A stretch of DNA of 29,037 nucleotides, from positions 1 to 29,037 of the IMG/VR virus record IMGVR_UViG_3300028197_000114. One strand, 5' to 3'. Below the pieces are notes generated by a model. The model did no database searches and had not been told where the DNA came from. It was given only the letters and a program-made list of their open reading frames with translations. Source of the stretch: a virus. Made by a program: the position numbers and the translations under genes. This document shows, piece after piece, positions 487-21,531 of this stretch; within the stretch, counting starts at the first letter, position 1, and each line of letters starts with the position of its first letter.

Positions 487-1488
487 TTACAGCAGTTCGT
501 ACTCTTTGATTGATTCAAATATACGGTGTGCTACTTGTGGCACTATGGCATTTCCGTATCCTTTAATGCTTTCGCTTCTCCACTTTGGAAAGGTAATGCC
601 GTCCAATTCTTTGGGAAGCCCATCATCTCCTCCACAAATAGGGGTGACAGTTGGGAAGTTTTCCCACCTATTTCGTACTTCGTCGCTACCCTGTCTGATA
701 GGTTGTTTCTCCCTCGGTCTATTGATGCATTGGCTTTTGCTTGTTGCGCTGTTGGTGTGGGTAGCAACTGATGTATTTGGGTTGCTAGGTTTGGCATCGT
801 TGTTCCGTTCGGGTATTTCTCCATCCTTGCTTTGAACTTCTCCAAGTCGTGAACTGGTTCCGATGTTGTTGGAGTCAGAAGCAAACCTATTTTTTCCATA
901 GTCGGTTTGTATTCGCTCATTACCTCCTGTGCTAACGTTCCCGAATCCCCACTCTTTGGATTCTTCTTGCCGCTGACTACTAGCCCGTCCATTGCTGTTG
1001 GTGTTTTTAGCAACAACCCAAACTCTGTCTCGTCTGTGGGGAGCGTTGACGGCACAAGCAGGAATAATAAACGATTGGACGGAGTACCCGATATTTTCCA
1101 AGTCAGCGCACACTTCCTCGAATACCAATCCGTCCGACCAATTAACAATCCCGCGAACGTTCTCGCCCAAGACCCAACGGGGATTACACTCTCTGATAAC
1201 TCTAAGCATCTCTTTCCACAGATAGCGTTCATCATCTGATCCCTTTCGTTGCCCTGCAAGGCTGAAGGGTTGGCAGGGGAATCCACCGCTAAGGATGTCA
1301 ACTCGTCCATTATACTTAGTTGCGTCGAACTCCTTGATGTCTCCATATTGTTCTGCATTCGGAAAGTGATACTTTAAAATCTTACGTGGAAATTCTTCCC
1401 ACTCGCAATTGAATATGTTTTCAAAGCCTGACCATTCCGCTGCCAGGTCAAAACCTCCAATGCCACTGAACAAACTTGCGTGTGTCAT
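487..1488 (-). CDS. dcm: C5 cytosine-specific DNA methyltransferase
   Basis: This 333-residue enzyme transfers a methyl group from S-adenosylmethionine to C5 of cytosine in a specific DNA site. Motif I is FSGIGGFDLAAEW (residues 7-19). Motif IV is GGFPCQPFS with catalytic Cys72. ENV (109-111) is motif VI and HRRDRVW (151-157) is motif VIII. The C-terminal GYGNAIVPQ is motif X. The stretch from about 160 to 280 is N/S/T-rich and poorly structured, where the target-recognition region is expected. Its start overlaps the upstream winged-helix gene as ATGA. No endonuclease partner is visible, so it probably protects phage DNA from host restriction. A second long ORF lies inside it in another frame. 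Confidence 0.95.
   Translation of the reverse strand: MTHASLFSGIGGFDLAAEWSGFENIFNCEWEEFPRKILKYHFPNAEQYGDIKEFDATKYNGRVDILSGGFPCQPFSLAGQRKGSDDERYLWKEMLRVIRECNPRWVLGENVRGIVNWSDGLVFEEVCADLENIGYSVQSFIIPACAVNAPHRRDRVWVVAKNTNSNGRASSQRQEESKEWGFGNVSTGGNERIQTDYGKNRFASDSNNIGTSSRLGEVQSKDGEIPERNNDAKPSNPNTSVATHTNSATSKSQCINRPREKQPIRQGSDEVRNRWENFPTVTPICGGDDGLPKELDGITFPKWRSESIKGYGNAIVPQVAHRIFESIKEYELL
543..1358 (-). CDS. Overprinted 271-codon ORF inside the methyltransferase gene
   Basis: This ORF lies on the same strand as the methyltransferase, in the +1 frame, and covers about codons 44-315 of that gene. It has an ATG start. The product has three similar proline/threonine motifs (LLKTPTAMDG, LLTPTTSEP, LLPTPTAQQ), a tract LTWKISGTPSNRLLFLLVPS and an ending LSPLFVEEMMGFPKNWTALPF. 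These read like a real protein family. From memory, unverified, very similar sequences are annotated as separate proteins in other phages with this type of methyltransferase. The in-frame counterpart (GGDDGLPKELDGITFPKW) is equally typical of the enzyme, so both frames look selected. No function can be assigned, and expression is unproven. Confidence 0.5.
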   Translation of the reverse strand: MQNNMETSRSSTQLSIMDELTSLAVDSPANPSALQGNERDQMMNAICGKRCLELSESVIPVGSWARTFAGLLIGRTDWYSRKCALTWKISGTPSNRLLFLLVPSTLPTDETEFGLLLKTPTAMDGLVVSGKKNPKSGDSGTLAQEVMSEYKPTMEKIGLLLTPTTSEPVHDLEKFKARMEKYPNGTTMPNLATQIHQLLPTPTAQQAKANASIDRGRNNLSDRVATKYEIGGKTSQLSPLFVEEMMGFPKNWTALPFQSGEAKALKDTEMP

Positions 1489-9887: not shown

Positions 9888-10472
9888 TTACGAGTTGTAA
9901 TATCTAATGCCCAAAGCTGTTGCAATTGACTTGATTTGATTGTCAGTGGGAATTCGTGGGTAAACATTAAGTCCTCCAAAGTAATTACGTTGAGAAGGTG
10001 AAAGGTCAGCACCTGTATTTGAAGTGTATTCAGGAAACGAACCGCTGTTAAACTGAAGGTACGTAATCATACGCTGACGGTAAAACATTCCAATTTCATT
10101 TGACTGCTCTACTACAACTTTTATATCTGTTAGGCTTGCAGGAGAACCTTGTTCTGATCCGTTTACTATTACGCTGTTGTTTGCAAACTTCATACGCACT
10201 ACATACGCAACTTCTGTAAATGCAAGCTGCACTAAACAAGGCTGAATGTAATCGTTTAAAAGAGTTGCGTAGGCTTCGTTGCCCACGTTTCCAACCGCGT
10301 CCGTATCAATCAATGCGCTAATTTTGTTTTCTAGTTCCGTACCCAAAGCAGGAAGAATCCACCTGTCTTGTGCAATCTTAATGTAAGGTTGCAAAAGGTT
10401 GTCATCAACCGTACTTCCGAGTGCTGTATCTCGCTTTAGCTTGCTTGAACTAATGAATAGTGTAGTTGCCAT
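9888..10472 (-). CDS. Head-tail connector-like protein (DUF6712-like)
   Basis: This 194-residue helical protein begins MATTLFISSSKLKRDTALG. It continues with LLQPYIKIAQDRWILPALGTEL and DYIQPCLVQLAFTEVAYVV, a pattern I associate with DUF6712 proteins of Bacteroidota phages, which occupy the gp6-like connector position after the portal. The portal stop leads to this ATG through TAAACAACATG, part of the same A-rich sequence used in the accessory cassettes. It probably forms a ring under the portal; this is inferred from family and position. Confidence 0.75.
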   Translation of the reverse strand: MATTLFISSSKLKRDTALGSTVDDNLLQPYIKIAQDRWILPALGTELENKISALIDTDAVGNVGNEAYATLLNDYIQPCLVQLAFTEVAYVVRMKFANNSVIVNGSEQGSPASLTDIKVVVEQSNEIGMFYRQRMITYLQFNSGSFPEYTSNTGADLSPSQRNYFGGLNVYPRIPTDNQIKSIATALGIRYYNS

Positions 10473-10477
10473 GTTGT

Positions 10478-12448
10478 TTAGTTATATGCGCCCCTATTAG
10501 GCATATCAATTGGTGCAATGTATTCTTCTCCCTTCTGTACTACGTCAGGGTTATTGCCAACCCTACGCATTACATCATCCCAATTTCCTTCAATTTCTAT
10601 CATCTCCATTTCCTTTGGTTCACCGTCAGGAGCGTAAATAAAGATTTCCCTTTGCCAACCATGCCTACAGTAAATACCGCCTTTTAGGGTGAACTTATCG
10701 AATCCTTGTGTACCAGGATGGTTGAATTCAGGATTTTCATAATACATATCTTCTATGTCTTCGTAACGATAGATAACACCATCGTCTGAAAGTTCCATCA
10801 TATCCACGCAGTAGTCCCTGCTTTCGTTACTCTGTGCAGGCGTGGTAGCCGTTTCTGCGTATCGATACCTAACCGCAAACAAGTAGTCATCTTTTCCAAT
10901 TACATCGTACTCGGAAACATCTTCTACGTTTGAGTATTCAGCATAAAACAAATGCTTCTTAGCGTGTAGCATTTCATCAAGTCCATCATCATCTACCAAC
11001 TCAGATTTTACGTGGTAGTAATGCTCTCCAAGCCTTGCGTCTAACGCTCGCATTCGGTCTTTTAGTTCAGAGTCTTTTTTTTTTAACTGCGTTTCTGCAA
11101 TTGCTTCTTCCTGAACCTCTTCCTTTTGAACTTCTTTGATTGCGTCTACGCCTTCCAAGAACAAAGCATCTGCTACTTCAGGTGTAAATTGAAGCATCTG
11201 CACTAAGAATACTTTAGCTTGATCCGTGGTAATCAAACCTTCTTGCACCTTTACAAGTACATCAACAGCACTTGAAATCTGCGCTCCATTGTAACTAGCA
11301 TCTTTGTCTGAAGTATCCCCTGCTCGTACAGGGTCAAACAAATTGTCTACCTCGACAAAGGACGCAGGTTTCATAGGAGTAAAGTACAGCTCAAGGGTGA
11401 TGTTGCTTGCCGCAAAGACAGGTCTTAAACCATCAAGTAGTAGACGTTGGAAGGGAAGCACAACTGTATTGTAAAACAAGTCATACGATTCTTTCATCTC
11501 GTCGGCATTGTTTCCAAATCCTCCTCCTGAGTCACGCAAGCCAAATAGCAAGGGACTTGTAACCCTATGCGCTGACAATACTTTTTTACTGCACTCTGTG
11601 CTTAGGTAGTCAAATACCTGGTGCGCGTCTGCTAAATTGAAACTTTCAATTGTAGGTGCTGTGTCTTGTGAGTCATTAAACGTCATCAAGATTTTACCTG
11701 CGTTGGTTGCTCCTCCAAACTTATTGTAAACCAATCGCTCAAGTTCAGCACGTTCTTCTTCTGTCGGTACGCCCGAATTGAAGTTCATGATAGTCGAGGG
11801 AAAGAAGCCTTGGTTTATCGAAGAAAGATGGTAAGCGGCTAGGTCTGCTTCTATCTGTGCGTATGCCGTTCCTGACTCGTAATCAGCAGAACCATAGTAA
11901 AATGACAAAGGAGAATACATTTTAATATGCAGGCATTGCGATGCCGCTGACCTGTCTTTTGTATTATACGCAGGAATTACTAAAGGCTCTTCTTGTTGCT
12001 CCGACCAATTTTTCTTATGGTAAAATAGTGGTACTTGGTCTTCATCATCTGCTATACCACATCGCATAGTTGCGGCAGGTAAGTGATACACTCGACTTAC
12101 TGTTGTCCTGTCTTGACTCCAAATGATGTTCAAGTAGCATTGACCGTACAGCTTAAGGTCAAAGGCTGCTTTTTTTAAGCACGTACCATCACCAAAAATA
12201 GAGTTTACTTTTAGCCACTGTTCAACGTGCTTGTCTTTGGCAATGGCATTTAAACCTTCACCATAAATCATTTCGCTTACGCCCTTAATTATCGCACCAT
12301 GCATACTCGAACTAGCATACAGTTCTTCTAAGTAGTGTGGGTACAGGTTGTTCGCACCCATATCAATCCACAGCTTGTTCTGGCTTTCCTTAAAAATAGG
12401 AAGTAAAGGTGACTGATAGTCTATAACTGAGAAGTTCTGCTTATTCAT
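10478..12448 (-). CDS. Portal protein with C-terminal cysteine-rich extension
   Basis: This 656-residue protein forms the dodecameric DNA gate of the head. The N-terminal 400 residues show a portal pattern: NNLYPHYLEELYASSSMHGA, IIKGVSEMIYGEGLN, LKLYGQCYLNIIW, and a helical crown region with HRVTSPLLFGLRDSGGGFGNN. Residues about 440-480 are a glutamate/lysine-rich coiled coil. From about 540 to 600 there is a separate domain, SRDYCVDMMELSDDG..YRYEDI....GGIYCRHGWQ, resembling a MuF-type C-terminal cysteine domain. No separate MuF gene is present, so a fusion is likely. The start overlaps the upstream gene as ATGA. The position after capsid genes is unusual. Confidence 0.85.
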   Translation of the reverse strand: MNKQNFSVIDYQSPLLPIFKESQNKLWIDMGANNLYPHYLEELYASSSMHGAIIKGVSEMIYGEGLNAIAKDKHVEQWLKVNSIFGDGTCLKKAAFDLKLYGQCYLNIIWSQDRTTVSRVYHLPAATMRCGIADDEDQVPLFYHKKNWSEQQEEPLVIPAYNTKDRSAASQCLHIKMYSPLSFYYGSADYESGTAYAQIEADLAAYHLSSINQGFFPSTIMNFNSGVPTEEERAELERLVYNKFGGATNAGKILMTFNDSQDTAPTIESFNLADAHQVFDYLSTECSKKVLSAHRVTSPLLFGLRDSGGGFGNNADEMKESYDLFYNTVVLPFQRLLLDGLRPVFAASNITLELYFTPMKPASFVEVDNLFDPVRAGDTSDKDASYNGAQISSAVDVLVKVQEGLITTDQAKVFLVQMLQFTPEVADALFLEGVDAIKEVQKEEVQEEAIAETQLKKKDSELKDRMRALDARLGEHYYHVKSELVDDDGLDEMLHAKKHLFYAEYSNVEDVSEYDVIGKDDYLFAVRYRYAETATTPAQSNESRDYCVDMMELSDDGVIYRYEDIEDMYYENPEFNHPGTQGFDKFTLKGGIYCRHGWQREIFIYAPDGEPKEMEMIEIEGNWDDVMRRVGNNPDVVQKGEEYIAPIDMPNRGAYN

Positions 12449-15039: not shown

Positions 15040-15306
15040 TTAATACCCATAGTTGGCTTCGTCTAAAAGCTCTACAAACAAATCAAAGTCTCTTGGTAGA
15101 AAAACACCTGATGGTTTCATCTCCTCAAATATGAGATACGCGCGTTCATAGTTTTCCTCAAGAATCGCTTCTTCTATAATGTCTAACCCATGCAAAAAGC
15201 TGTCATCAAACATATAGTCTAATCGAAATTCACCGAGCATTTCAAGCAACTCCTGCTGACTCGTGTTTGTCCATGAAGACCAAATCCTGTTTACTAATGG
15301 ATTCAT
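15040..15306 (-). CDS. Acidic helical protein between protease and scaffold
   Basis: This 88-residue protein is acidic and helical, with RIWSSWTNTSQQELLEMLGE and FDDSFLHGLDIIEEAILEENY. No motif is recognised. Its start overlaps the protease stop as ATGA, and it ends 22 bases before the scaffold start. It could be a head-assembly chaperone by position, or a mobile small gene of the accessory type upstream. Confidence 0.65.
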   Translation of the reverse strand: MNPLVNRIWSSWTNTSQQELLEMLGEFRLDYMFDDSFLHGLDIIEEAILEENYERAYLIFEEMKPSGVFLPRDFDLFVELLDEANYGY

Positions 15307-16220
15307 CCGTATGTGTTGTAGTATTTACGCTTTAAATACGCTGTATAGAACTTTACCTTTCTTTGGTTTAGTTCTACTTTATCCATCTCTACGTTCTCTT
15401 CTTCTACTCGGTCTTCAACAGCCTTGACTTCACCATCGTATTCTGTAAGAACACCTTCGTACACTTCTAATTCGATACCTGCTTCCGTAGTGTAGCTGCC
15501 GTTATCCATTTCAGCAGGCAGTCCTTCTTCGTCAATCTTAAACACTACGCTTCCTGCTGCCAGGCTTTCACCTTCTGTAGCAATGGTAAATCCCTGTGTC
15601 AGCGTTACCTCTTGGTAGAACTTTCGCTTAACAGCAAACCACAATTTCTTAAATATTTTTTTCATGGATAGTGACTGACTCATTTCTTCTACCTTATCTG
15701 AAAAGTAACCTTCAATACTTAGCCCACGTAGTTTGCCGTTCTTTATCTCGCTCCACACCTCATCGTTAGCTACCTGTAATTTTACCATCCAAGTACCCGA
15801 TGGTACAGCAAAACCATAAACCTTGCTTTTATCTAGCTCAGGGTCTTCTACTATCCAACTCTCAACCACGCTTACATCATCTACTTTTTCTAGATGCTCC
15901 TTTGTGTGATCGTTTGTGCGATTCTGTTTTAGAAATAACTCACTAGCTAATTTGACTGTTTCCTTACTGAAGTACACATCGTATTCTTCATCGGTGTTTT
16001 CGTCAATCCTTGGAATGTGTTTGTCAGGAATTAGGGCTGCACCCACCACTGTACGTTGGTCTTCGTCTACAGCCGCTAAGCTCATAGCGCGTGTGTTGCC
16101 GTCCTTGCTAAAGAAAACAAAGTTCTCTTCGATTGCAGGAAACTTTACAAGACTAATTGCCTCTACTCCCCATGCAGTAGAACCTTCTTCAATAAGCAGT
16201 TCAACAAGTTTGCGCTCCAT
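15303..16220 (-). CDS. XkdF-type prohead protease
   Basis: This 305-residue protein matches the XkdF-like serine protease family (S78-like) that matures the prohead. Conserved stretches are VVGAALIPDKHIPRID (59-72), DVYFSKETVKLASELFL (81-97), then NDHTKEH with His105 and His109, ESWIVEDPELDKSKVYGF and a glycine motif LRGLSIEGYF with candidate nucleophile Ser168. The C-terminal 130 residues are acidic and may be a propeptide or scaffold-binding part. It is the first head gene after the accessory island and uses the island's start cassette (TAAATAACAGAGATATG), so the motif is not confined to the small genes. Confidence 0.85.
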   Translation of the reverse strand: MERKLVELLIEEGSTAWGVEAISLVKFPAIEENFVFFSKDGNTRAMSLAAVDEDQRTVVGAALIPDKHIPRIDENTDEEYDVYFSKETVKLASELFLKQNRTNDHTKEHLEKVDDVSVVESWIVEDPELDKSKVYGFAVPSGTWMVKLQVANDEVWSEIKNGKLRGLSIEGYFSDKVEEMSQSLSMKKIFKKLWFAVKRKFYQEVTLTQGFTIATEGESLAAGSVVFKIDEEGLPAEMDNGSYTTEAGIELEVYEGVLTEYDGEVKAVEDRVEEENVEMDKVELNQRKVKFYTAYLKRKYYNTYG

Positions 16221-16231
16221 ATCTCTGTTAT

Positions 16232-16465
16232 TTAGTAATCGCCAATGCCTACAAGCGCATAATTAGAATCTCTTGGGTCACGCTCAACATACAGGACTTC
16301 CGCAAACGCTGAAGCAATGTCGTAAAGTTCATCCAAATCATCACGGCTCATGCCGTTTCCTGTCATATTGTAAACAAGTAACTCCTGATTGTTGCCTTCT
16401 CTGTAGTCATCGTGAACTGCTAAACCAGGAACACGGTTAATTTCGTTAATAATAATCTGTGACAT
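16232..16465 (-). CDS. Small acidic accessory protein A (paralogue of the gene at 18491)
   Basis: This 77-residue protein carries about 15 acidic and 5 basic residues. Its centre, GNGMSRDDLDELYDIASAF, matches GSDWTDRELDMLYDEASRY in the protein at 18491-18709, so the two are probable paralogues about 2.2 kb apart. Each has strand segments before this helix and a beta-like C-terminus. It is the last member of the ArdA-led array. Size, acidity and linkage suggest an anti-defence protein that might mimic DNA, but no homologue is recognised. Confidence 0.72.
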   Translation of the reverse strand: MSQIIINEINRVPGLAVHDDYREGNNQELLVYNMTGNGMSRDDLDELYDIASAFAEVLYVERDPRDSNYALVGIGDY

Positions 16466-16476
16466 ATCTCTTTTGT

Positions 16477-16755
16477 TTATGCTCTTCTTATGTAATCTAA
16501 ATCATCAAGAAAGTCATCAATGTAATCTTCTCTTCCAAATCCTATGCCCATATAGCTAACGCTGTCTTCCACGTAGTCGATGGCTTCTTGTGCTGACATA
16601 CCCTCAACATTAAAAAACGATGCGGTAATCTCAGCAAGTAGTTCAATAAACTCAAAACGATCTTGACCAATAGCAGGGTTTTTGCCATATTCCAATAGCA
16701 AAGCCGATAGCAAATCGTATCGTCTTTCCTTAGTGATATATAGGTCTGTCCTCAT
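16477..16755 (-). CDS. Small acidic accessory protein B
   Basis: This 92-residue helical protein has about 20 acidic and 9 basic residues. The basic residues cluster at the start (TKERR), and the end is strongly acidic (REDYIDDFLDDLDYIRR). No known motif is seen. It has the shortest start cassette of the array (TAAACAACAGAGATG). An acidic terminal helix could mimic nucleic acid, which remains speculation. Confidence 0.72.
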   Translation of the reverse strand: MRTDLYITKERRYDLLSALLLEYGKNPAIGQDRFEFIELLAEITASFFNVEGMSAQEAIDYVEDSVSYMGIGFGREDYIDDFLDDLDYIRRA

Positions 16756-16764
16756 CTCTGTTGT

Positions 16765-16989
16765 TTACAATTCTGACACTGCCGACCATCCATACTCTTC
16801 AGCAAGAACTGCGTATAAGTCATCGCGATCGTAACGGTCTAAATCTCTAGTTCTTACAAGTACGCCATTGTCAAAACGCTCTACGCTCTCAACCATTTCC
16901 CAATACAAGCCATCGCTAGTCATGTCTAGCAAATCAGATACATCATCTACAGACGCTATACCAACAAACATATCTACTGAATACTTCAT
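16765..16989 (-). CDS. Small acidic accessory protein C
   Basis: This 74-residue protein has about 18 acidic and 6 basic residues. It has a helix-rich centre (SVDDVSDLLDMTSDGLYWE), a short strand pair (ERFDNGVLVRTRDL) and an RYDRDDLYAVLAEEY helix, which recalls the RDDLDELYDIAS motif of protein A. A distant relationship is possible but weak. The start cassette is TAAACAAAAGAGATATG. Confidence 0.7.
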   Translation of the reverse strand: MKYSVDMFVGIASVDDVSDLLDMTSDGLYWEMVESVERFDNGVLVRTRDLDRYDRDDLYAVLAEEYGWSAVSEL

Positions 16990-17000
16990 ATCTCTTTTGT

Positions 17001-17231
17001 TTAGCCAATGTAACTACCCATGTAATCTAAAATCTGATTATGAGCGTCTTCTTCTTGTTGCCATGTAGGTTCTTCAACTCCATCATATTCATCAAGAATA
17101 TACTGTGTTACCTCATTGACAATCTCCGCAAAGTCTCTGTCGGTCACCCAATCATATTGACCCATGTCATCAGGGTCTTGGTATATCTCATAGAAGACTG
17201 CCTCGTGTACAAAGTCATAAATCCATTCCAT
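17001..17231 (-). CDS. Extremely acidic small accessory protein D
   Basis: This 76-residue protein has about 21 Asp/Glu and one Arg, a net charge near -20. It also has an unusual number of Tyr and Trp (IYDFVHEAVFYEIYQDPDD, then YILDEYDGVEEPTWQQEED). Acidic, aromatic-rich short proteins resemble DNA mimics such as Ocr or Ugi in composition only. No homologue is recognised. Its upstream junction, TAAACAGCATTGATATG, is the most diverged of the cassettes. Confidence 0.72.
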   Translation of the reverse strand: MEWIYDFVHEAVFYEIYQDPDDMGQYDWVTDRDFAEIVNEVTQYILDEYDGVEEPTWQQEEDAHNQILDYMGSYIG

Positions 17232-17242
17232 ATCAATGCTGT

Positions 17243-18064
17243 TTAAATTGGTTCTGCCAGTAAAGCAAGAACCGATCGGTCTTCAGTTCCTTGTACTCTA
17301 AATTCTAGTGCAGGTACTACGCTCGTTTCACCAACGTTTAATTTTAAAGGCACTGCGCCTGCTGATTCTAGCATAGCGTTTGACACAGTAAACAATGCTG
17401 TATACGTATAGACAACAGTATCGACCGTTTCCGTAAGCGTAACTGAAAGAACATCGCCATTGGCATAGTCCTTACCAATTGTGCTTGATACAGCAGTAGT
17501 GATGAAAAAGCCTGTGTTAAAGTTATTTGTGACAAGCGTAACAACTGTTGTTAACCCACCAACTACAAAGGTTAGTTCATCCCCGACTACGTAGCCTGAG
17601 CCTGCGTTAACGATAGTAACCGATGTAGGATTAAAAGCACCTACTGCTGTCTGCGTAAACGTAACTTCAAAACCCGTACCTATTCCATCCGTAGTTGGTT
17701 TATACGTTGTACTTGGTGCTGCTGTTACTGCCCCTGCGCTTGACGCTGAACCAGGAAATACCCCTATTGTACCATCGGGAGAGTCAGTTACAGTCGTGGT
17801 AATCTTTGCGCCTGTACCATTACCAGTTAAAGCTGTTGCATCATATTCTGTCGCACTTTGCGCTGCTTTTAACTCAGGGCTATAAGGCGTAAGACCTGGC
17901 AATACACTTGTGTTAGTGGCTGCAAATGGTGCGATAACGCTGTTAGCAGGAAAAGGCTTAATGTCTAAAGTAATTACCGCTGCATTGTCATTGTGCAAAT
18001 ACAAAGGACGTGGTAACACTTGGTAATCATCAGTTGCTTTTAGTGCTGAATAGTATCTATACAT
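17243..18064 (-). CDS. Beta-rich structural-type protein within the accessory island
   Basis: This 273-residue protein differs from its neighbours: it is neutral, Thr/Val/Gly/Ala-rich and beta-predicted. It begins MYRYYSALKATDDYQVLPR and has the pattern TIVNAGSGYVVGDELTFVVG, partly echoed later as KDYANGDVLSVTLTETV. This 'G.GY..GD.LT' style is common in phage virion proteins. It might be a head-decoration or tail protein, or a virion-borne partner of the island. It has the same start cassette as the small genes, so the cassette and the protein class are independent. Confidence 0.7.
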   Translation of the reverse strand: MYRYYSALKATDDYQVLPRPLYLHNDNAAVITLDIKPFPANSVIAPFAATNTSVLPGLTPYSPELKAAQSATEYDATALTGNGTGAKITTTVTDSPDGTIGVFPGSASSAGAVTAAPSTTYKPTTDGIGTGFEVTFTQTAVGAFNPTSVTIVNAGSGYVVGDELTFVVGGLTTVVTLVTNNFNTGFFITTAVSSTIGKDYANGDVLSVTLTETVDTVVYTYTALFTVSNAMLESAGAVPLKLNVGETSVVPALEFRVQGTEDRSVLALLAEPI

Positions 18065-18075
18065 ATCTCTGTTGT

Positions 18076-18237
18076 TTAGAATCTTAAGTTATCATACACA
18101 CTATATAAAAGCCTAATTGCTTCGTCTACTTCATCTTGCACTTCCGCCCATTGTATCTCCATTGCGTAGCCTTCTCTTAAGTCCTCAAGGTCGGCAGCAA
18201 TAATTGCCACCTCTCGCGTTACTTTTTTTAAATTCAT
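18076..18237 (-). CDS. 53-residue acidic accessory protein E
   Basis: The protein begins MNLKKVTREVAIIAADLEDL and ends YDNLRF. It is helical throughout and moderately acidic (about 12 acidic, 6 basic). Both its junctions are exact TAAACAACAGAGATATG cassettes, with the stop TAA inside the downstream copy and the ATG inside the upstream copy, which supports the gene despite its size. No homologue is recognised. Confidence 0.75.
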   Translation of the reverse strand: MNLKKVTREVAIIAADLEDLREGYAMEIQWAEVQDEVDEAIRLLYSVYDNLRF

Positions 18238-18248
18238 ATCTCTGTTGT

Positions 18249-18479
18249 TTAGTATTCAATTAGTCTTTCATCGCCACCGTGCCGCAAAAACCAATCTTCC
18301 CATTCTATATCAAAAAGCAATTCTCTTTGATTTAAGAGATAAACGAATTCAGGTTCGTTCACATTAAAGTTATACTCAAAAAATGTTTCTAGAATTGAGT
18401 CCGCTTCATAGCTATTCAAACCAAAATAATCATTGGCTAAATCATATAACTCTTTCCAACTTCTCGGTGTACTGCTCAT
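18249..18479 (-). CDS. Small acidic accessory protein F
   Basis: This 76-residue protein has about 17 acidic and 5 basic residues and many aromatics. It includes SWKELYDLANDYFGLNSYEA and ELLFDIEWEDWFLRHGGDE. It is probably helical. Both flanking junctions are exact TAAACAACAGAGATATG cassettes. It has no recognised motif. The aromatic-acidic surface is like that of protein D. Confidence 0.72.
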   Translation of the reverse strand: MSSTPRSWKELYDLANDYFGLNSYEADSILETFFEYNFNVNEPEFVYLLNQRELLFDIEWEDWFLRHGGDERLIEY

Positions 18480-18490
18480 ATCTCTGTTGT

Positions 18491-18709
18491 TTAAACCCCA
18501 ACTTCTACTTGAGCAACACTAGGGTCATTATAAATCTGACTGATTCGAACGCTATCGTATCGGCTCGCCTCATCATATAACATATCCAATTCTCGGTCTG
18601 TCCAATCGCTGCCGTCAGGCTTTTCTATTTCAATTGTGCGACCAATAACCGCATCAACGAAGTAGCCCATACGTTCAAATAATTGTGCAATTTGTTCTGT
18701 AGTTTCCAT
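18491..18709 (-). CDS. Small acidic accessory protein G (paralogue of the gene at 16232)
   Basis: This 72-residue protein has about 16 acidic and 6 basic residues. It begins METTEQIAQLFERMGYFVDA, then has GSDWTDRELDMLYDEASRY, which aligns with GNGMSRDDLDELYDIASAF of protein A, and ends in a strand (SVAQVEVGV) like that protein's NYALVGIGDY. The alpha/beta order suggests a small common fold. Duplication followed by divergence within the array is the simplest explanation. Confidence 0.72.
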   Translation of the reverse strand: METTEQIAQLFERMGYFVDAVIGRTIEIEKPDGSDWTDRELDMLYDEASRYDSVRISQIYNDPSVAQVEVGV

Positions 18710-18719
18710 ATCAAGTTGT

Positions 18720-18893
18720 TTATAAAGACTCTGCTTTTCTTAAAGCGTCAGCTAGGTTGTCAAACTCCCACACACTCCCACCTCGTGTATCAGACATAAG
18801 CCAATAGTTTGTACCGTGCGGTTGGTATATCTCAATGTTATTCACTTCGATATACGTTGTGCCTCGGTCTTCGTATCCGTCAAAATTTACCAT
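18720..18893 (-). CDS. 57-residue accessory protein H, beta-rich
   Basis: The product begins MVNFDGYEDRGTTYIEVNNI and contains YQPHGTNYWLMSDTRGGSVW and a C-terminal helix LADALRKAESL. It is mildly acidic. Strand-strand-strand-helix is likely. It follows the ardA-like gene after one base, and its stop is the TAA of the next cassette (TAAACAACTTGATATG). It could be part of the ArdA functional unit. The function is unknown. Confidence 0.74.
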   Translation of the reverse strand: MVNFDGYEDRGTTYIEVNNIEIYQPHGTNYWLMSDTRGGSVWEFDNLADALRKAESL

Positions 18894-18894
18894 A

Positions 18895-19608
18895 TTAATA
18901 GCTGCTCCAAATATAACCGCCTACCTCTCGATAGCCTTCGTATTCTAAGTCCCGTGCAAATTTCTTGTAATCGAAGAATTTTTTGATTGTTTCTATTCCT
19001 AATTCGGCAACATCTCCAATCATATCAATATACCATTCTGCGATGTCTTCGTTTCGCATACTGCTAATTTCTTCATACACCGCTTCTGCTTCTACAAGGC
19101 TGTCATATCGGTCTTCCCAATCATCAAGAATGAGCATATTTAAATCTCCGTTGACATCGAGCGCGTAACCGAATGCGTCATAATCAAAATAGGTTTCGTA
19201 TTGGTCATCACTCAATTCGATTTCATCTAAGAGTTCGTAAGAGAAATCTAGAACGCTATCACCTTCTCCCCTATAGGCGTTTTCTACAAACTCCTTAAAG
19301 TCATCTTGGTAATCAGCCGCATCTACAATTACGTTCGCAGGGATGCCGTACTCTTTGGATACTTCAAATAGCTCATTCCATTTGTTCCATACGTTCTCAT
19401 CTCGAAGGATAGAATTAGCATCCCCTGAACTTAGGTAATCCCAATCGACCACTTCATAGTCCACAAAATTTACTTCTTCTGCTTTCTCATTAAAGTCATC
19501 TTCAAAATCTCTATGACTTCTATACTCTAACGGATTGAAATTAACGTCAGTCCCCCCTCCTGTGGGTAGATAAATTCGATACCAAACGGTTATATCAGTT
19601 TTATTCAT
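18895..19608 (-). CDS. ardA: ArdA-like antirestriction protein (DNA mimic)
   Basis: This 237-residue protein is extremely acidic, with about 61 Asp/Glu against 18 Lys/Arg. It contains the ArdA pattern: FVENAYRGEGDSVLDFSYEL (107-126), then YFDYDAFGYALDVNGD (140-155). A second similar unit follows at about 187-235 (ending FFDYKKFARDLEYEG and YREVGGYIW), suggesting a duplicated C-terminal module. ArdA mimics bent B-DNA, binds type I restriction enzymes and blocks restriction and modification. The N-terminus (TDITVWYRIYLPTGG) is less like classical ArdA. It is the first gene of the accessory island and has a promoter-like sequence upstream. Family assignment is from memory but fairly sure. Confidence 0.82.
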   Translation of the reverse strand: MNKTDITVWYRIYLPTGGGTDVNFNPLEYRSHRDFEDDFNEKAEEVNFVDYEVVDWDYLSSGDANSILRDENVWNKWNELFEVSKEYGIPANVIVDAADYQDDFKEFVENAYRGEGDSVLDFSYELLDEIELSDDQYETYFDYDAFGYALDVNGDLNMLILDDWEDRYDSLVEAEAVYEEISSMRNEDIAEWYIDMIGDVAELGIETIKKFFDYKKFARDLEYEGYREVGGYIWSSY

Positions 19609-19665: not shown

Positions 19666-21531
19666 TTAAAGGGTAGTTTTGGAACTTAATTGCGCTGACT
19701 GCATTGCCTGTCCTTCAAGCTGACTCTGTACTACATAGGCTTGCATCCCTTCGGCTGATTGTAAACGTGAAGGCATCGGTGCTGTGCTTTGGGTATCAAA
19801 GCCTGATCGCGTTTGTCTTGATGAACCACCACCCACACTACCGCCTGATGTTCCTGCTTGGTCTAAGATTCCTTTAATACTTGCAAAGCTACTAAGCACA
19901 CCACCTACCATAGTCGTAATAAGTACGGCTAAAGAGATAGGGTCTTTTGCATTTTCTGATGCTCCCCTTACTGCGTTTGCCATTGCAATAGCCTGGTTAA
20001 GTAAAACATCTGCCACAGCTAATGTTTTCTGCTCTTGGCTATTTTGTTCGGCTAACTTACCCATTTGCTTAAACACCCCACTCACCCCTTTTGCTAGTGC
20101 CTGCCTCCCTTGAATTTCTAGGTCAATTACTTCTTGGTTTTCGTCAATCTCTTTTTGCTTAAACTTCTCGTTTATAGCATCTTTCTGTTCCTGATAAGCT
20201 TGGAATGCTTCAAGTAGCAAAGCATCGTTTGTACCTGCTAACTCTTCTTGTCTTTCAAATTCAGCAAAGGCTGCTTCTTCTTCTAGCTGCTTGTCGGTCA
20301 AGTCCTTTTGTCGAAACTCTTCCGCTAGTTGCGCTTCCTTATCTAGTCGTTCTTTTTCTTTAGCGTTCTTTCTATCAAGTGCTTGTTGTTCTAAAGCCTC
20401 GACATCCATATCGTACTGTTGCTTTAAAACTAGCAACTGAGAAAATACTGCACCCCTAGCTTTTAGTTCTGCTTGGTCTGCTTCGTACTGCAACCTGCGC
20501 CTTTCCTTCTGCTGCGTGATGTCATCCTCAATCATAGCCAGATACATTTCTTCCTGTATCTTCAGTAAACGATTAGCTACAAATTCCGCATCTTGTTCTC
20601 TTTTCCTAGCCGCATCATCTCGTTTCTTTTGGGCTGCTTCTTCTGCTTGCTGCTCCTTTTTATTGGCTTGTAACTGATAGCCTGCCCGTGTGTTTTCTAA
20701 CTGCTGAAGTTGCCTTTCTGCTTCATCGATTGCCTCTTGACCTTCTTCTTCTATACCTTCAGGGTCAAACAGCAGGTCACCAACACCTGTATAGAATCCT
20801 GCTGCTAAGTTTGTTTTTTCTGACAGCACGCCAATTCTTACTAGTCCTTCACTAATGCCATCGATGGCAACTAACGCTGCTGCGACAGGTGCGGTAATAA
20901 GCATTAAAAGACCTGCGACTACATCGCTTGCTGTTTGTGCTGCTTTAGCTTGCTCTTCTTTTTGAGTTTTCAAAGACTCAATCATAACTCTTTGCGCTGC
21001 GATTGCCTCATCAGTAGCTGCCATACGCAGTTCTAGGATGTCCTCCTCTGTTGCTCCTTGCAGTTTCAAGATGTTCTCAGTAGCACTAATTGCTTCTAGT
21101 TGGTCATTGGCTGCTTGAACTAACGCTTGGTTTTCTTCAACAAGTTTGTCTGTTTCATCTGACGCACCTGTTATTGCTCCCGATATTTCATCCCAATAAC
21201 CTACAATTGTACCTAGAGCAACAACAAGTAAGCCTATCCCTGTTGCAGCAATAGCACTTTTCAATCCTTTAAAACCCTTGCTCAACCGCGCAACCGATCG
21301 CTGAGTTGATTTAAACTGTCTAACAGTGCGCGATAATTCCCTAGGCAGTATTCCTCCAAATAAATCCGCAACCCCTCCCCAATCTTTTGTTGCAGTTTTT
21401 CCTCCCTTTCCGATTCTCTTACCTGCATTATCTGCTTTCTCACTAAGTTTATCTAATGATTTTGTGGCTTTTTCAGCAGCAGGCGTAACCTTATCAACTC
21501 CGATGAGGTTAAAATTCATGTCATTACTCAT
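19666..21531 (-). CDS. Tail tape measure protein
   Basis: This 621-residue protein has the layout of a tape measure: a basic N-terminus with VTPAAEKATKSLDKLSEKAD, a hydrophobic segment (about 88-112, AIAATGIGLLVVALGTIVGYW), another hydrophobic stretch (about 200-225), a long charged coiled coil (about 270-470, repeated E/Q/K/R/A), and a C-terminal hydrophobic region (ISLAVLITTMVGGVLSSF). It sets tail length. At about 1.5 angstrom per residue, the usual rule for siphophages, the tail would be roughly 90 nm. The upstream 54-residue gene overlaps its ATG (ATGA). It is the last tail gene before the accessory island. Confidence 0.9.
   Translation of the reverse strand: MSNDMNFNLIGVDKVTPAAEKATKSLDKLSEKADNAGKRIGKGGKTATKDWGGVADLFGGILPRELSRTVRQFKSTQRSVARLSKGFKGLKSAIAATGIGLLVVALGTIVGYWDEISGAITGASDETDKLVEENQALVQAANDQLEAISATENILKLQGATEEDILELRMAATDEAIAAQRVMIESLKTQKEEQAKAAQTASDVVAGLLMLITAPVAAALVAIDGISEGLVRIGVLSEKTNLAAGFYTGVGDLLFDPEGIEEEGQEAIDEAERQLQQLENTRAGYQLQANKKEQQAEEAAQKKRDDAARKREQDAEFVANRLLKIQEEMYLAMIEDDITQQKERRRLQYEADQAELKARGAVFSQLLVLKQQYDMDVEALEQQALDRKNAKEKERLDKEAQLAEEFRQKDLTDKQLEEEAAFAEFERQEELAGTNDALLLEAFQAYQEQKDAINEKFKQKEIDENQEVIDLEIQGRQALAKGVSGVFKQMGKLAEQNSQEQKTLAVADVLLNQAIAMANAVRGASENAKDPISLAVLITTMVGGVLSSFASIKGILDQAGTSGGSVGGGSSRQTRSGFDTQSTAPMPSRLQSAEGMQAYVVQSQLEGQAMQSAQLSSKTTL

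What the first reader, a model, noticed from the sequence alone, without database searches (positions are those of the whole stretch)
16232..19608. ArdA-led array of tiny acidic genes with a common start cassette: candidate anti-defence island
Seen: an ArdA-like gene followed by eight genes of 53-92 codons, most strongly acidic (one has about 21 acidic and one basic residue in 76), plus one beta-rich gene, all inserted between tape measure and prohead protease. ArdA is an established DNA-mimic inhibitor of type I restriction. Inference: the small acidic proteins may inhibit further host defences, several by DNA mimicry, forming an undescribed modular anti-defence locus. The island's own promoter-like sequence fits early expression.
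Basis: partly seen in the sequence, partly recalled or inferred. Interest (0 to 1): 0.85.

Follow-up and report, generated by a model that had tools for sequence, protein, structure and literature searches.

The report
Swappable acidic-gene cassettes in marine phages
Beside its head-building genes this uncultured phage carries a row of tiny, very acidic genes, each joined to the next by the same 17-letter stop-and-start sequence, and comparison with relatives shows that single genes of this kind are swapped between distantly related phages exactly at that sequence; an adjoining anti-restriction gene suggests, but does not prove, that they disarm bacterial defences.

Summary
On the minus strand, between tape-measure and prohead-protease genes, lie an ArdA homologue, eight acidic genes of 53-92 codons and one 273-codon beta-rich gene. 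A stop+start repeat, TAAACAACAGAGATATG, or a variant, links most of them and also starts the protease gene. The exact repeat recurs in IMG/VR: 33 non-redundant arrays, about 80 small-protein families, none net positive; 142 junctions have exactly 11 nt between a TAA stop and the next ATG. In 23 gene pairs at least 90% identical in DNA, from phages whose protease, capsid or tape-measure proteins are mostly 25-68% identical, identity falls to random exactly at the repeat. So single genes move as units. A sister lineage uses a different leader at the same locus; more distant relatives have no island. ArdA is in 13 of 32 array records, and three times the prohead protease is naturally fused to ArdA or to an island protein. 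An anti-defence role is the best reading but rests on context. DNA mimicry and early expression are not shown. Known analogues are mycobacteriophage start-associated sequences and T4 PeSLs; this is a new variant with unusually precise single-gene boundaries.

The parts
18895..19608 (-). ArdA-like antirestriction protein, 237 aa, net charge -43; no start cassette
   Evidence: PF07275 E=1.9e-9 and phrog_2059 E=1.6e-9; same family in 13 of 32 array records
18720..18893 (-). 57-aa acidic protein, no cassette; relatives in L121, L112, L130, L099
18707..18722 (-). variant cassette TAAACAACTTGATATG before the 72-aa gene
   Evidence: sequence
18491..18709 (-). 72-aa acidic protein; relatives in L100, L106, L132, L139
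18477..18493 (-). exact cassette TAAACAACAGAGATATG (stop of the 72-aa gene + start of the 76-aa gene)
18249..18479 (-). 76-aa acidic protein, 91-93% identical in phages with 57-62% identical protease
18235..18251 (-). exact cassette
18076..18237 (-). 53-aa acidic protein, no relative found
18062..18078 (-). exact cassette
17243..18064 (-). 273-aa beta-rich protein, probably virion-type; in some relatives it lies without cassette between the 15040-type gene and the scaffold gene
17229..17245 (-). degenerate cassette TAAACAGCATTGATATG
17001..17231 (-). 76-aa protein, 21 acidic and 1 basic residue; relatives in L121, L085 and under another leader in L203
16987..17003 (-). cassette TAAACAAAAGAGATATG
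16765..16989 (-). 74-aa acidic protein, predicted ferredoxin-like fold (pLDDT 88)
16753..16767 (-). cassette with 2-nt deletion TAAACAACAGAGATG; the deletion is shared by all homologues of this gene, so the leader travels with the gene
16477..16755 (-). 92-aa acidic protein; 84-96% identical DNA in 5 other contigs (4 distinct settings), flanks unrelated
16463..16479 (-). cassette TAAACAAAAGAGATATG
16232..16465 (-). 77-aa acidic protein
16218..16234 (-). cassette TAAATAACAGAGATATG at the start of the prohead protease gene
15303..16220 (-). XkdF-type prohead protease, array border; naturally fused to ArdA or to island proteins in L096/L098, L144 and L123
15040..15306 (-). 88-aa acidic gene (net -14) conserved in the locus, no cassette in this window
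19666..21531 (-). tape-measure protein, other border of the array
   Evidence: phrog_24676 E=4.8e-13

Best explanation
The region is a modular accessory array in the head-gene operon of a clade of uncultured, mostly marine phages (hosts probably Bacteroidota). Its unit is one gene bounded on both sides by a 17-nt repeat that holds the stop codon of the gene before and the translation start of the gene after (TAA-ACAACAGAGAT-ATG). SHOWN: units are exchanged singly between diverged phages with breakpoints at the repeat; the encoded proteins are small, extremely diverse, acidic and under purifying selection; the array keeps company with ArdA. INFERRED: the repeat works as a non-Shine-Dalgarno translation start that makes any newly acquired gene immediately expressible, and as the short homology at which recombination (for example by strand annealing) swaps genes. 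INFERRED, less certain: the proteins are a rotating set of inhibitors of variable host defences, each directed at a different enzyme, with ArdA as a frequent companion against type I restriction. SPECULATIVE: because they lie in line with head genes and have been fused three times to the prohead protease, some may be loaded into the prohead and injected, as T4 internal proteins are.
For: Cassette excess and arrays in many contigs, also found without using the motif by de novo search of protease-retrieved loci. 142 junctions with exactly 11 nt, all with stop TAA. Single-gene exchange: 23 pairs at least 90% identical in DNA between phages with diverged core genes, identity about 0.95 inside and about 0.25 outside, changing at -15 and +14; worked example 16477-16755. 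Combinatorial: 149 adjacencies, 7 seen twice; one of 33 arrays holds a family twice. No conserved sequence upstream of the cassette, so it is not a promoter. A at -6, -12 and -13 matches positive determinants of initiation in Flavobacterium (PMC6847099). ArdA in 13 of 32 array records and 8 of 9 sister-lineage arrays; DUF7249 and DUF3846 also occur. Protease fusions. The window phage also has a C5 DNA methyltransferase. Purifying selection. Acid bias specific to the island.
Against: No small protein has a demonstrated or database-assigned anti-defence role. No common N-terminal targeting sequence. ArdA is missing from 19 of 32 array records (several are fragments). Location in the structural module would also fit virion proteins. 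No recombinase was identified in the window: the search was limited and the record is 29 kb and linear.
Confidence: 0.6

Rival explanations
1. The small acidic proteins are head-assembly or virion components (acidic core, scaffold or neck pieces) that vary for structural reasons.
For: Same strand and operon as protease, scaffold and capsid genes; the beta-rich member resembles virion proteins (low-confidence model); an 88-aa acidic gene, 15040-15306, is constant in the locus; fusions to the prohead protease.
Against: Content differs almost completely between phages with the same head genes, and distant relatives have none; a structural set would be conserved. No PHROG structural match for any small family.
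Confidence: 0.17
2. The array encodes host-takeover proteins (inhibitors of host transcription, replication or metabolism), not counter-defence.
For: Many phage small acidic proteins act on host enzymes (general knowledge, not tested here); no defence-specific homology except ArdA, which need not share the function of its neighbours.
Against: Fast turnover and almost one member per family per phage fit variable targets such as defences better than conserved host enzymes; ArdA association.
Confidence: 0.2
3. Head-packaged, injected counter-defence: the array proteins enter the prohead with the protease, are ejected with the DNA and act before any phage gene is expressed.
For: Protease-ArdA fusion in two assemblies and two further protease fusions; adjacency to protease and scaffold genes; T4 internal proteins are small injected inhibitors with one-to-one specificity (PMC12373910; PMC9026906); ArdA and DarA domains are discussed among injected polyvalent proteins (PMC5512222).
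Against: No shared N-terminal capsid-targeting sequence; T4 internal proteins are basic, these are acidic; neighbouring genes can fuse by chance loss of a stop codon (the L144 junction reads a decayed cassette in frame).
Confidence: 0.25
4. The repeat is only a strong translation start copied by local duplication; apparent shuffling is ordinary mosaicism.
For: Adenines at positions known to help initiation in Flavobacterium; the core TAAACAAC also precedes the unrelated gene 9888-10472.
Against: Breakpoints fall at the repeat on both sides in 23 pairs; families in one array are unrelated to each other, not duplicates; a shared cassette variant moves with its gene.
Confidence: 0.08

Closest known systems
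Start-associated sequences (SAS/ESAS) of cluster K mycobacteriophages (PMC3203893)
   Same: Short asymmetric repeat, 11-19 copies per genome, a few nt before ATG of genes of different families; the upstream stop codon may lie inside it; proposed role in translation initiation
   Different: 13 bp GGGATAGGAGCCC with Shine-Dalgarno-like core; restricted to the non-structural genome half; in the passages read, exchange of single genes at the repeat is not reported. Here: 17 nt, no Shine-Dalgarno, in the head-gene module, with single-gene exchange at the repeat
T4-type mobile regulatory cassettes (PeSLs; Arbiol 2010, known here only through PMC4503421)
   Same: Repeated regulatory elements between small accessory genes that mediate shuffling
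   Different: PeSLs are promoter plus terminator stem-loops; this repeat has no promoter or hairpin signature and includes the stop and start codons themselves
Integron gene cassettes (from general knowledge)
   Same: Single-gene units exchanged as modules in an array at a shared repeat
   Different: No attC-like element conserved at the border (conservation stops at the 17 nt) and no integrase seen in the window genes scanned; units lie in a phage operon
T4 internal proteins IPI-IPIII (PMC9026906, PMC12373910)
   Same: Sets of small, variable, non-homologous phage proteins tied to the head, each specific for one restriction enzyme
   Different: T4 ones are basic and share a capsid targeting sequence; these are acidic with no common N-terminus; packaging not shown
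ArdA antirestriction family (PF07275)
   Same: Sequence family membership of 18895-19608, acidic
   Different: About 237 aa, with the Pfam profile matched in two stretches; here near the prohead protease and once fused to it
Anti-CRISPR / anti-defence gene clusters of mobile elements (PMC7648647, abstract only)
   Same: Clustered small accessory genes next to an established anti-restriction gene
   Different: No Aca-type regulator seen; no known anti-CRISPR family; linked by an identical stop-start repeat

Membership tests
ArdA (PF07275) | Profile match above the curated cut-off | tested here: met
   38.8 bits against cut-off 27; 13 of 32 array records over the cut-off
ArdA (PF07275) | Inhibits type I restriction by DNA mimicry | not testable with these tools
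   needs an assay
ArdA (PF07275) | Small island proteins are ArdA relatives or fragments | tested here: not met
   hhalign of the ArdA profile against 85 profiles: small families at about 10% probability or less; the single strong match is a 233-aa profile that is ArdA itself
DNA-mimic proteins | Strong, island-specific net negative charge | tested here: met
DNA-mimic proteins | DNA-like spacing of surface charges or a fold match to a known mimic | tested here: inconclusive
   one family modelled; generic ferredoxin-like matches only, VIA Z at most 7.6; surface charge not computed
Cluster K SAS | Repeat immediately upstream of ATG of unrelated small genes | tested here: met
Cluster K SAS | Sequence GGGATAGGAGCCC with Shine-Dalgarno core, in the non-structural genome half | tested here: not met
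   different sequence, located between tape-measure and protease genes
T4 PeSL | Early promoter plus terminator stem-loop in the repeat | tested here: not met
   positions -60 to -15 carry no conserved sequence; no terminator-like site inside the array
Integron gene cassette | attC-type recombination site and integron integrase | tested here: not met
   conservation stops at the 17-nt repeat; no integrase among the ten window genes scanned against Pfam outside the island
T4-type internal head protein | Common N-terminal capsid targeting sequence | tested here: not met
   no conserved codons after ATG
T4-type internal head protein | Present in virion and injected | not testable with these tools
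   needs proteomics
Anti-CRISPR locus | Contains a known anti-CRISPR family | tested here: not met
   83 representatives, no hit in NCBIfam, no anti-CRISPR hit in Pfam

The most novel reading that the evidence does not exclude
An integrase-free, integron-like system of phages: single-gene cassettes whose only shared part is a stop-start translation signal are swapped at that signal, building in each phage a different set drawn from some 80 or more families of acidic counter-defence proteins, made with the head and possibly carried in it and injected.
Probability: 0.3. Interest if true: 0.9.

Novelty: new variant of a known kind. Interest (0 to 1): 0.72.

Why it matters
It marks a compact, recognisable locus holding dozens of families of unknown small proteins under strong exchange, next to a known anti-restriction gene. 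The 17-nt motif (and its 18-nt sister) can be used to mine metagenomes for candidate anti-defence genes of what are probably marine Bacteroidota phages, where little is known. It also offers a clean natural case for asking how short repeats drive single-gene mosaicism in phages.

Tried and rejected
Known-family scans of 83 small-family representatives: Pfam only DUF3846 plus chance hits, NCBIfam none, PADLOC only weak SIR2 (E 0.006), PHROGs a few families of unknown function. tblastn of 14 island proteins against 50,697 phage records: none; ArdA likewise none. PDB sequence search: none meaningful. Cassette as promoter: rejected. Own promoter in the window: sigma-70 scan equals chance, strict Bacteroidetes promoter found in the tape-measure/array gap of 3 of 22 arrays but not here. 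Cassette in cellular genomes: 34 hits in 257 Gb, only one multi-copy, a 5-kb MAG contig sharing sequence with phage locus L094. Small proteins as ArdA pieces: rejected. All-against-all profile comparison of small families timed out, so the number of true superfamilies is unknown. The beta-rich protein model is poor (pLDDT 69, pTM 0.44), so its fold match to a virion protein is only a hint. Fold search of the 74-aa protein lists two T4-type internal head proteins far down (E 0.15-0.19): not evidence. No named fold or family is excluded by its absence from the VIA list.
Full report
WHAT WAS CHECKED. The window is a 29,037-base virus record. All genes concerned lie on the minus strand. Between the tape-measure gene (19666-21531) and an XkdF-type prohead protease (15303-16220; PHROG head maturation protease E=3.2e-15) lie an ArdA homologue (18895-19608; PF07275 E=1.9e-9), eight small acidic ORFs and a 273-aa beta-rich ORF. 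The motif AAACAACAGAGATATG, with up to 3 mismatches, occurs 9 times against 0.57 expected; eight of the nine lie in this stretch at gene starts, including the protease start.

THE CASSETTE. An exact scan of IMG/VR with TAAACAACAGAGATATG returned 66 stretches, many with 3-7 copies about 250 nt apart. After removing redundancy, 33 arrays remain, some on truncated contigs. Of consecutive junctions, 142 have exactly 11 nt between the stop and the next ATG, and all 142 use TAA. Conservation is confined to the cassette: positions -60 to -15 and the codons after ATG carry little information. Inside-cassette conservation is partly built in by the search, but a motif-free search of protease-retrieved loci recovered the same repeat. 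In 257 Gb of cellular genomes the 17-mer occurs 34 times and only once in several copies, on a 5-kb MAG contig that shares sequence with a phage contig. The cassette therefore joins the stop of one gene to the start of the next. With A at -6, -12 and -13 and no Shine-Dalgarno sequence it fits translation initiation as measured in Flavobacterium (PMC6847099); the other favourable position there, -3, is A in that work but G here.

THE GENES. 176 proteins under 130 aa start at cassettes; none is net positive, median charge -0.146 per residue. Counting all small ORFs of the islands, 246 have median -0.141 and under 1% are non-negative, against -0.016 and 45% for 67 other small ORFs of the same loci (p=4e-29). 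They fall into about 80 BLAST clusters. Their coding status is firm: 550 synonymous against 263 nonsynonymous single-base codon changes, ratio about 0.13 of neutral (pairs are not independent). C-termini are enriched in aromatic residues (Tyr last in 26% against 7% overall), unexplained. No small family has an informative database match except DUF3846 once and DUF7249 for a cassette-less first gene of other islands.

SINGLE-GENE EXCHANGE. 100 pairs of array genes from different phages are at least 75% identical in protein; in the subset where all comparable core proteins are under 75% identical, gene DNA identity reaches 94-99% while protease, capsid or tape-measure identity is mostly 25-68%. 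For 23 such pairs with at least 90% DNA identity, identity is about 0.95 in the gene and drops to about 0.25 at position -15 before and +14 after it, the outer edges of the two cassettes. Example: gene 16477-16755 is 92-96% identical in L228, L229 and L230, whose 120-nt flanks beyond the cassettes are 18-33% identical to the window; all its copies share a 2-nt deletion in the leader, so the leader moves with the gene. Searches found relatives of this gene only in array-carrying contigs of this phage group. Of 149 gene adjacencies only 7 recur, and only one array has a family twice.

THE LOCUS ACROSS RELATIVES. Arrays lie between tape measure and protease, or between protease and scaffold/capsid genes. 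A sister lineage (protease mostly 62-68% identical) has the same locus with another leader, TAA-AACAACTTAAAG-ATG, spacing 12 nt, 24 small proteins all negative, and ArdA after the protease in 8 of 9 arrays; some families are shared across the two leaders, up to 75% identical, so leader type goes with lineage. Protease relatives outside both groups (L018, L038, L049, L058, L075, L024, L069) have no small-gene island. The nearest cultured relative, Nonlabens phage P12024L (protease 37%), holds small genes in this slot on the opposite strand without the cassette. None of 14 island proteins matches any of 50,697 phage records. The host is therefore only inferred (Bacteroidota).

WHAT IT DOES. ArdA is in 13 of 32 array records. 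In L096 and, identically, in L098 from another assembly, the protease is fused to ArdA in one 544-aa frame. In L144 the protease is fused to a small island protein (58% identical to a stand-alone one), its linker being a decayed cassette read in frame. In L123 the protease ends in a domain like the stand-alone small genes of L097 and L099. These fusions and the position among head genes raise the possibility that the proteins enter the prohead, like T4 internal proteins, which are small, variable, injected, and each specific for one type IV enzyme (PMC12373910, PMC9026906). But no common N-terminal signal exists, and neighbouring genes can fuse by accident. I put anti-defence at about 0.6, injection at about 0.25, and DNA mimicry by several of the proteins at about 0.3; the last is untested.

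WHAT REMAINS ORDINARY. The 74-aa protein is a generic ferredoxin-like fold. The beta-rich protein is probably virion-type (weak). A promoter of Bacteroidetes type is clear before some arrays (3 of 22 gaps by strict consensus) but not in this window.

COMPARISON. It works like SAS repeats (translation-start repeats, PMC3203893) combined with PeSL-type shuffling, but matches neither by sequence nor by structure. It is best filed as a new variant of repeat-linked modular accessory loci in phages.

Noticed in passing
L096:16-1650 (-), L098:11777 onward (+): Prohead protease and ArdA are one 544-aa open frame, found identically in two assemblies.
   Followed up: partly
L144:12532-13764 (+): Prohead protease fused to a small island protein through a decayed start cassette read in frame; a perfect cassette follows directly.
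   Followed up: partly
L123, protease at about 10344-11540: C-terminal extension of the protease resembles stand-alone small island genes in L097 and L099.
   Followed up: partly
L203, L209, L214, L218, L224, L226: Second leader type TAAAACAACTTAAAGATG builds similar arrays in a sister lineage.
   Followed up: yes
window 487-1488 (-): C5 cytosine DNA methyltransferase (PF00145 E=1e-48), possible further anti-restriction function.
   Followed up: no
window 10465-10480 (-): The core TAAACAAC stands directly before the ATG of the gene 9888-10472, outside the array; possible origin of the cassette.
   Followed up: no
L165 (JAFMIA010000163.1): Contig binned as a Pseudomonadales MAG shares sequence with phage locus L094; probably mis-binned phage.
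   Followed up: partly
island proteins of all arrays: C-terminal residue is Tyr in 26% against 7% overall; aromatic in the last two positions 55% against 25%.
   Followed up: partly
L181 (NC_018272) 33158-35521: Cultured Nonlabens phage P12024L has eight small leftward genes in the corresponding slot before the protease, with mixed charges and no cassette.
   Followed up: partly
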